Source: Candidatus Endolissoclinum faulkneri L2 (lineage in GTDB: Bacteria; Pseudomonadota; Alphaproteobacteria; Thalassobaculales; Thalassobaculaceae). Taken from it: DNA of 64,000 bases. Each line of letters starts with the position of its first letter. Within the stretch, counting starts at the first letter, position 1. The position numbers were made by a program, and so were the translations under genes. The stretch lies in contig NC_019566.1 of assembly GCF_000319385.1 (NCBI RefSeq), positions 413,015-477,014 of the forward strand, in the 5' to 3' direction. This document shows, piece by piece, positions 37,156 through 39,027 of the stretch. Under the pieces are notes generated by a model. The model was given only the letters and a program-made list of their open reading frames with translations, was not told the DNA's origin and made no database searches.

Positions 37156-37839
37156 ATGAATAGAAAAAAATTTTCATACTCTTCTGATACTGTAATGAAT
37201 TTATTACGCGCAAAAATACTAGAAGCAGCTCTGCCAAACATTTTGTCCGATGGATGGACACGTAAAAGTCTAGTCAAAGGTGCATGCTCCATTGGTTATG
37301 CTCCTACTGATGTAGATATTGCCTTTCCTTTAGGTGTGCGTGAAGCTGTAATGTGTTGGCTATCACTAACCGATGCATGCATGGAATCCGATGCACGAGA
37401 TTGTGATTTAGTAAAATTAAGAATTCGCGAAAAAGTTGTACTTAGCGTACGCCTTAGATTGGAAAAAGCACTGCCTTATAAAGATGTGGTACGTCGTACT
37501 TTATCGTTTATGTGCGTACCTGGCAATATGCATATAATGACAGCTAGCTTGTTTAATACCGTGGATAGCATTTGGTTAATTTGCGGTGATATGTCTAATG
37601 ACTACACCTATTACACTAGGCGTATTCTATTGTCAGCCGTGTTTAGTTCAACTCTAATTTATTGGTTGGACGACAATTCTGATAATCATGCAGATACATG
37701 GGCTTTTCTTAATCGTAGAATTGATGATGTGATGGGGGCGTCAAAAGTGATAAATAAATTAAAAGTATTTGGGGTTTCTTTACCTAACCCACGAAGATTT
37801 TCACGTGCTTGGTACGCTTGGTACAATACAATTTCGTAA
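37156..37839 (+). CDS. COQ9 family protein (ubiquinone biosynthesis)
   Basis: Lipid-binding helper of ubiquinone synthesis, related to TetR-fold proteins; known in mitochondria to assist COQ7. The 227-residue protein contains the family pattern ALPNILSDGWTRKSLVKGACSIGY, then a region with two aromatic helices (SIWLICGDMSNDYTYYTRRILLSAVFSSTLIYWLDD) that match the COQ9 C-terminal domain, and ends with the RRFSRAW tail. Cytoplasmic or membrane-associated. It is divergent from rpsU. Its preservation suggests the cell still makes ubiquinone and respires, consistent with acnA. Confidence 0.88.
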   Translation: MNRKKFSYSSDTVMNLLRAKILEAALPNILSDGWTRKSLVKGACSIGYAPTDVDIAFPLGVREAVMCWLSLTDACMESDARDCDLVKLRIREKVVLSVRLRLEKALPYKDVVRRTLSFMCVPGNMHIMTASLFNTVDSIWLICGDMSNDYTYYTRRILLSAVFSSTLIYWLDDNSDNHADTWAFLNRRIDDVMGASKVINKLKVFGVSLPNPRRFSRAWYAWYNTIS

Positions 37840-38889
37840 AAAATTATAAATAATCTAGCTTGTAAATTCATTATGTTGATTACACTACATAGTGTTTGAT
37901 TTACTTTATTGTTTTTTGATAAGTGTAGACAGCATAACTTTTGACGATATTAATTTATTGTAATGTATTAAAGTTTTTTATTTTACTTTAATCAATATTA
38001 GTAGGTGTATTACAAATGTTAAAAATTATGGTTTATCAGTGTCATAAGTGAAAAAAATAATTAAAATTATTCCCCTTGGGCTTTTCAAAAAAGAGATTAG
38101 CTGTTGGTTTTTAGCGTTATTTGTATTTTAACTAATTAAGAAATTATTTCTATATCATTTCTAAAAAATTAATTAAGATGATATATATCCATAATGTTAT
38201 AACTTTTGATTATGAATTTTTGTGTCGTAAACTAGATTGGTAATACACTATTTGTTAAAGAATTAGCTGATTATAAAAATACCATATCGATGCTGTGATT
38301 ATCTGTGATGTATAATAGATTTAGAAAAAACAAATTTTAATTTTGATTTTTGTCAAAAAAAATAAATGAAAATAGGTTTTTTGCGTACTATTTACGCACT
38401 TTAAAAAGATTATTGTATGCTTATTACAAAGAATGTAATTATTAAATTAATTAGATGAATGATAGATATTTAAAGTATTATGTTGTTCGTCTTAAATTTT
38501 CCTTGTTTATAAACATTTCAATTAAAATGAATGATTATGTACTAAATCTCCTAGAGTAGTAAATTTCATAAAGAAGCTTGTGAAAAGAATATCTTACTAT
38601 ATAATTAAATTTTTACTCTAAAAATTAAAAGAAAAATATTCTACATTGCAGGATTATACGGCTGTTTTTGGGGTAATTGTGGTATTTATTTTTTTTTGCA
38701 TGCTTTGAATGATATCAGTTTACTGCAGCAGTTAATTAATTCAGCAGCCTTTATTCGGTAGAGATGATAGATTGTTGTGATAGGGATTTTTAAGTTGTAG
38801 CTCGTTTATGCAAGCGCCTTTGATAAGGTTATTAAGTAAAATTTTGCCGCCTGAATCGCACTATAAGATTATTTCATGCTGTAAATAGG
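37840..38889. other. Intergenic, COQ9-family gene to the 45-codon gene
   Basis: About 1 kb AT-rich DNA between genes pointing at each other. No gene, hairpin or repeat of note was found. Confidence 0.45.
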
Positions 38890-39027
38890 CTAGCGTGGGA
38901 ATTGATTGTCTGGTATAATCTTCCTAACTGGGGCTGTTGTTAGAGGTATTTCCCACTTCAGCAAGAAGATAGTGCCAACGAAAATGCTTAAAATTATCAA
39001 AAATAGCAAAAATGTAGCAAAACGCAT
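38890..39027 (-). CDS. Small single-span membrane protein, 45 residues
   Basis: A short gene easily missed. From ATG at 39025-39027 to TAG at 38890-38892 it encodes MRFATFLLFLIILSIFVGTI..., one N-terminal membrane span (about 3-23), then KWEIPLTTAPVRK and IIPDNQFPR at the end. The pattern W(D/E)IP.PT.PV.K.IPD.(R/Q)FP(R) recalls a conserved small protein of Rhodospirillales and relatives whose function is unknown to me. The coding stretch is clearly less AT-rich than the DNA on either side, supporting selection. The ribosome binding site is weak. It stands alone in a desert. Assignment as a real gene is likely; the function is not known. Confidence 0.7.
   Translation of the reverse strand: MRFATFLLFLIILSIFVGTIFLLKWEIPLTTAPVRKIIPDNQFPR

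What the first reader, a model, noticed from the sequence alone, without database searches (positions are those of the whole stretch)
38890..39027. Unannotated-size 45-codon membrane gene preserved inside a desert
A short frame of clearly higher GC content than its surroundings encodes one membrane span followed by KWEIPLTTAPVRK and IIPDNQFPR. The W.IP.PT.PV.K.IPD pattern resembles a conserved small protein of related alphaproteobacteria. Preservation in a genome that drops ruvCAB and tolQRAB argues for an important role, which is unknown.
Basis: partly seen in the sequence, partly recalled or inferred. Interest (0 to 1): 0.6.

Follow-up and report, generated by a model that had tools for sequence, protein, structure and literature searches.

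The report
Conserved alphaproteobacterial small membrane protein
A 45-residue membrane-protein gene in a degraded tunicate-symbiont genome (Candidatus Endolissoclinum faulkneri) is real and belongs to an unnamed family found across Alphaproteobacteria; the symbiont has kept it under selection after losing the genes it normally sits with, so it probably has a job of its own, not yet known.

Summary
Window 38890-39027 (-) encodes a single-pass 45-aa membrane protein in the tunicate symbiont Ca. Endolissoclinum faulkneri (strain L2, inferred). Homologues occur in 226 of 385 sampled alphaproteobacterial genomes, almost always in one setting: corC-aroB-aroK divergent from SMALL-BIG-xerD, BIG being a ~600-aa secreted helical solenoid without Pfam or NCBIfam match. 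Both sequenced symbiont strains lost aroK, aroB, BIG and xerD; tolQ is absent and no ruvB match reaches its cutoff in L2. They kept SMALL intact between COQ9 and CorC under purifying selection (second- versus third-position changes 5:23, p=0.0009; omega about 0.07, dS near saturation).

New here: BIG's start codon normally lies inside SMALL's last codons (20-nt overlap; ATG at the same place in 102 of 116 loci with BIG, 2 of 11 without). About five lineages kept SMALL without BIG, so it is not merely a leader for BIG.

Most likely SMALL is an N-in/C-out inner-membrane accessory subunit, co-translated with BIG but with another, unknown partner that survives in the symbiont. Kind: ordinary small membrane protein; retention pattern unusual.

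The parts
38890..39027 (-). SMALL: 45-aa single-pass membrane protein gene
   Evidence: ORF; homologues in 226/385 class genomes; intact in L5 with 71% aa identity
38956..39024 (-). transmembrane helix, residues 2-24
   Evidence: AlphaFold2 helix 2-24; best 19-aa hydropathy 2.82
38893..38955 (-). C-terminal tail, residues 25-45, predicted periplasmic
   Evidence: charge bias across family, N-flank more positive in 76 of 87; conserved P28, P30, P39
38905..38910 (-). codons (GAC AAT) at the place where relatives carry BIG's overlapping ATG; ATG absent here
   Evidence: ATG at this place in 102/116 loci with BIG, 2/11 without; none in L2 or L5
37840..38889 (.). intergenic stretch where relatives have BIG and xerD; no recognisable remnant
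   Evidence: no BIG or XerD match here or in the genome
39028..40080 (.). intergenic stretch where relatives have aroK and aroB; no recognisable remnant
   Evidence: no AroK/AroB match in G000 or G001
37156..37839 (+). COQ9 family gene, new left neighbour after gene loss
   Evidence: TIGR02396, PF08511
40081..41427 (+). CorC/CNNM-type gene, surviving ancestral neighbour (true start may lie further in)
   Evidence: PF01595, PF03471, CBS; corC beyond aroKB in relatives

Best explanation
SMALL is a translated inner-membrane protein of one helix, N-terminus in, with a proline-rich ~20-residue tail in the periplasm. In most Alphaproteobacteria examined it is the first gene of SMALL-BIG-xerD and its last codons overlap BIG's start, so ribosomes ending SMALL probably restart on BIG and the two are made together. 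It most likely acts as a small accessory subunit: the helix docks on a larger inner-membrane partner and the tail contacts a periplasmic one, BIG where BIG exists. In Endolissoclinum it serves a partner other than BIG, XerD, AroK and AroB. Shown by sequence analysis: the gene, the family, synteny, overlap, partner loss, purifying selection, a predicted helix. Inferred: translation, topology, coupling, accessory role; the partner is unknown.
For: Family and synteny. AroK, AroB, XerD and BIG absent from L2 and L5 (xerD model in L2). Selection L2-L5: dN 0.18, dS 2.7, omega 0.066, codon-position differences 12/5/23, second versus third p=0.0009. Helix prediction and charge bias. Overlap tied to BIG's presence, Fisher p=2e-6; AAT over AAC at the Asn codon 58:7 against 667:1153 in neighbouring genes, p=6e-18. 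Overlapping pairs are enriched for subunits of complexes (PMC10666635, which studied mainly shorter overlaps). BIG predicted as a helical solenoid, pLDDT 88.7.
Against: No partner identified and no experiment. dS is near saturation and rests on 45 codons, so omega is imprecise. SMALL drifts faster (71% identity) than the genome median (85.6%, PMC3851785), and the L2 copy lost a nearly invariant proline and the Gly-Gly. The tail of the L2 protein itself is net positive, which weakens the topology call for this copy. Presence counts for a 46-residue profile are approximate. p-values treat related genomes as independent.
Confidence: 0.5

Rival explanations
1. SMALL is only a leader cistron that loads ribosomes onto BIG; its peptide does not matter.
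For: Fixed 20-nt overlap in most genomes, tied to BIG.
Against: Kept without BIG in about five lineages (Endolissoclinum, G114, G165/G348/L083, Azospirillum L099/G380, G048/G278), with purifying selection in Endolissoclinum; motif upstream of the overlap conserved.
Confidence: 0.1
2. SMALL is a dedicated membrane anchor or partner of BIG and nothing else; copies without BIG are leftovers not yet decayed.
For: Co-occurrence in 385 genomes, odds ratio 10.5; adjacency and overlap.
Against: Retention in both symbiont strains, whose hosts are dated 6-31 My apart (PMC3851785), with omega about 0.07 while BIG left no recognisable remnant.
Confidence: 0.25
3. The ORF is a decaying relic that happens to be open in L2 and L5.
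For: Motif erosion in L2; fast divergence; 17% of neutral simulations stay open.
Against: No simulated copy reached the observed protein identity (0 of 20,000); position bias p=0.0009; coding-level GC.
Confidence: 0.06
4. The stretch is kept for its DNA or RNA, not its protein.
For: Raised GC continues downstream of the ORF.
Against: Changes concentrate at third codon positions, 23 against 5 at second.
Confidence: 0.04

Closest known systems
Unnamed alphaproteobacterial family upstream of xerD (e.g. Thalassobaculum litoreum NZ_FNBW01000003.1, locus L038)
   Same: Same length, helix, W-[DE]-I-P core, 58% identity; ancestral corC end of the locus kept
   Different: Symbiont copies lack aroKB, BIG, xerD and the overlapping start codon
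Small bitopic accessory subunits of bacterial membrane complexes such as CydX (own knowledge)
   Same: One helix, short tail, under 50 residues, in an operon
   Different: No sequence match found; partner unknown here
FixS/CcoS (PF03597)
   Same: Small single-helix membrane protein
   Different: Match E=0.66, 10.2 bits against a cutoff of 23.1, helix only
Translationally coupled overlapping gene pairs (PMC6728339, PMC10666635)
   Same: Downstream start inside the upstream gene's end
   Different: 20-nt overlap, longer than the common 1, 4 or 8; coupling not tested

Membership tests
Alphaproteobacterial SMALL family (defined here) | Significant match to the family profile | tested here: met
   E=4.4e-17 for the window copy (this copy is a member of the alignment); 41 of 61 relatives by single sequence
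Alphaproteobacterial SMALL family (defined here) | One N-terminal helix followed by a proline-rich tail | tested here: met
   alignment
Alphaproteobacterial SMALL family (defined here) | Typical (not defining) setting: divergent from aroK-aroB-corC and followed by BIG and xerD | tested here: not met
   Only corC remains; read as secondary loss, as corC flanks it on the ancestral side
Alphaproteobacterial SMALL family (defined here) | Typical (not defining): ATG of BIG 17 nt before the stop codon | tested here: not met
   Absent in L2 and L5, as in 9 of 11 loci without BIG
FixS/CcoS (PF03597) | Pfam gathering score | tested here: not met
   10.2 against 23.1 bits
Translationally coupled gene pair (SMALL-BIG in relatives) | Overlapping stop and start in the same direction | tested here: met
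Translationally coupled gene pair (SMALL-BIG in relatives) | Downstream translation depends on upstream translation | not testable with these tools
   needs reporter constructs
Small accessory subunit of a membrane complex | Physical association with a larger membrane protein | not testable with these tools
   needs pull-down

The most novel reading that the evidence does not exclude
SMALL is an undescribed core envelope factor of Alphaproteobacteria, needed even by a symbiont that reportedly lost ftsZ and here lacks tolQ, xerD and BIG, and paired by translation in most relatives with an undescribed periplasmic solenoid.
Probability: 0.25. Interest if true: 0.65.

Novelty: new member of a known kind. 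Interest (0 to 1): 0.42.

Why it matters
A short gene with no Pfam or NCBIfam match, conserved over much of a bacterial class, is hard for standard annotation to name. The symbiont acts as a natural deletion experiment that separates SMALL from its operon partners, which makes its independent function directly testable. The overlap also warns that a conserved end motif can reflect a neighbour's start codon and not only protein function.

Tried and rejected
Pfam and NCBIfam scans of SMALL gave nothing above cutoff; BIG gave no Pfam match above cutoff and no NCBIfam match. tblastn of a relative's SMALL in plasmid records found none. Structure search with BIG returned only generic helical-repeat matches, none at E <= 0.001. 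Sigma-70 and terminator scans were no better than shuffles. Paper searches found no description of the locus. Considered and rejected: BIG without SMALL as evidence against a pair, since two such genomes (G039, G057) carry a diverged small ORF at the place. YN00 and LWL85 failed for SMALL L2-L5 (math domain errors, probably from saturation); NG86 is quoted with that caution.

Full report
Identity of the genome. The window lies in a closed 1,481,191-bp genome. That it is L2 is inferred from size and relationship. The published picture fits: 57.2% coding, GC 40.9% coding and 24.7% noncoding, few recognisable pseudogenes.

The observation. The ORF 38890-39027 (-) encodes MRFATFLLFLIILSIFVGTIFLLKWEIPLTTAPVRKIIPDNQFPR. 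Its GC, 0.377, is near coding level against 0.240 and 0.284 in the flanks. No Pfam or NCBIfam family reaches its cutoff. AlphaFold2 on 87 sequences gives one helix, residues 2-24, and an extended tail (mean pLDDT 85).

Homologues. 41 of 61 relatives match the single sequence at E <= 1, and 226 of 385 class genomes match the wider profile at E <= 0.001. In a sample of 299 genomes of the phylum all 14 matches are in the same class, so the family looks restricted to Alphaproteobacteria within what was sampled. The consensus is TM - T-W-D-I-P-A-P-x-x-x-V-E-K-V-I-P-x-D-R-F-P-R. Named carriers include Thalassobaculum, Sneathiella, Pelagibius, Kiloniella, Magnetospirillum, Rhodovibrio and Azospirillum. 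Two genomes that the profile missed (G039, G057) carry diverged small ORFs before BIG, so real presence may be wider than counted.

Locus. In nearly all loci read, the order is corC-aroB-aroK divergent from SMALL-BIG-xerD, often followed by accA. Kiloniella loci lack the corC-aroB-aroK side nearby. BIG is a ~600-aa protein with a signal-peptide-like start (by eye), invariant cysteines at 223 and 245, a confident all-helical repeat fold (pLDDT 88.7), and only generic structural matches.

What the symbiont lost. AroK, AroB and XerD queries match G002 strongly but match neither symbiont genome; AccA is found elsewhere in both. BIG is absent from both by sequence and by profile. The xerD model finds nothing in G000. 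SMALL remains between COQ9 and CorC in both strains.

Selection. SMALL aligns between L2 and L5 without indel or stop: 32 of 45 residues identical, 40 nucleotide differences placed 12/5/23 over codon positions; second against third position p=0.0009. NG86 gives dN 0.18, dS 2.74, omega 0.066, with dS near saturation. Neighbouring genes give omega 0.13-0.24 for CorC, COQ9 and 5-FCL and lower values for RpsU and AcnA. In a neutral simulation none of 20,000 copies kept the observed protein identity. SMALL is less conserved (71%) than the published median for L2-L5 proteins (85.6%).

The overlap. In most relatives BIG's likely start codon lies inside SMALL's last codons, giving a 20-nt overlap, and the frame from that ATG reads as a plausible signal peptide. 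Where SMALL encodes Asn followed by Asp or Glu, the Asn codon is AAT 58 times and AAC 7 times, against 667 and 1153 in neighbouring genes of the same loci (p=6e-18). The ATG is at that exact place in 102 of 116 loci with BIG and 2 of 11 without (p=2e-6); the two exceptions are L099 (Azospirillum) and L180. Among loci with BIG but no ATG there, three checked (L057, L111, L116) have a candidate start just downstream. Part of the conserved C-terminal block is thus dual-coded. Several loci without BIG still keep an acidic or amide pair followed by R/Q-[FL]-[PD], so some protein-level constraint seems to remain. These tests treat related genomes as independent.

Independence from BIG. SMALL and BIG co-occur strongly (odds ratio 10.5), yet SMALL persists without BIG in Endolissoclinum, G114, the G165/G348/L083 group, the L099/G380 group, and G048/G278, about five lineages by inspection, without a tree. 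In the others of these, xerD follows SMALL directly.

Mechanism. The N-flank is more positive than the C-flank in 76 of 87 family members, supporting N-in/C-out; the window copy alone does not show this bias. Overlapping gene pairs are enriched for subunits of complexes (PMC10666635), which makes a SMALL-BIG contact plausible. Since SMALL outlives BIG, it should also serve another, retained partner. I therefore favour an inner-membrane accessory subunit, at confidence 0.5. Translation, topology, coupling and partner are untested.

tolQ is not found in the genome. The ruvB model gives only weak partial matches far below its cutoff, as expected from other AAA+ proteins. The other ruv and tol genes were not tested.

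Noticed in passing
L038:6119-7993 (+) and homologues: BIG: an alphaproteobacterial ~600-aa, probably secreted, helical-repeat protein with two invariant cysteines and no Pfam match above cutoff or NCBIfam match, found in 257 of 385 class genomes.
   Followed up: partly
window 38700-38889: GC stays raised (0.347) for about 190 nt downstream of the ORF with no ORF to explain it; possibly a fading remnant of BIG.
   Followed up: no
L171 (G057) and L167 (G039), upstream of BIG: Strongly diverged SMALL-like ORFs missed by the profile, suggesting the family is wider than counted.
   Followed up: partly
L147 and L148 (G218): One genome bin holds two SMALL-BIG-xerD loci of different sequence, on two contigs; a paralogous locus or a mixed bin.
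   Followed up: no
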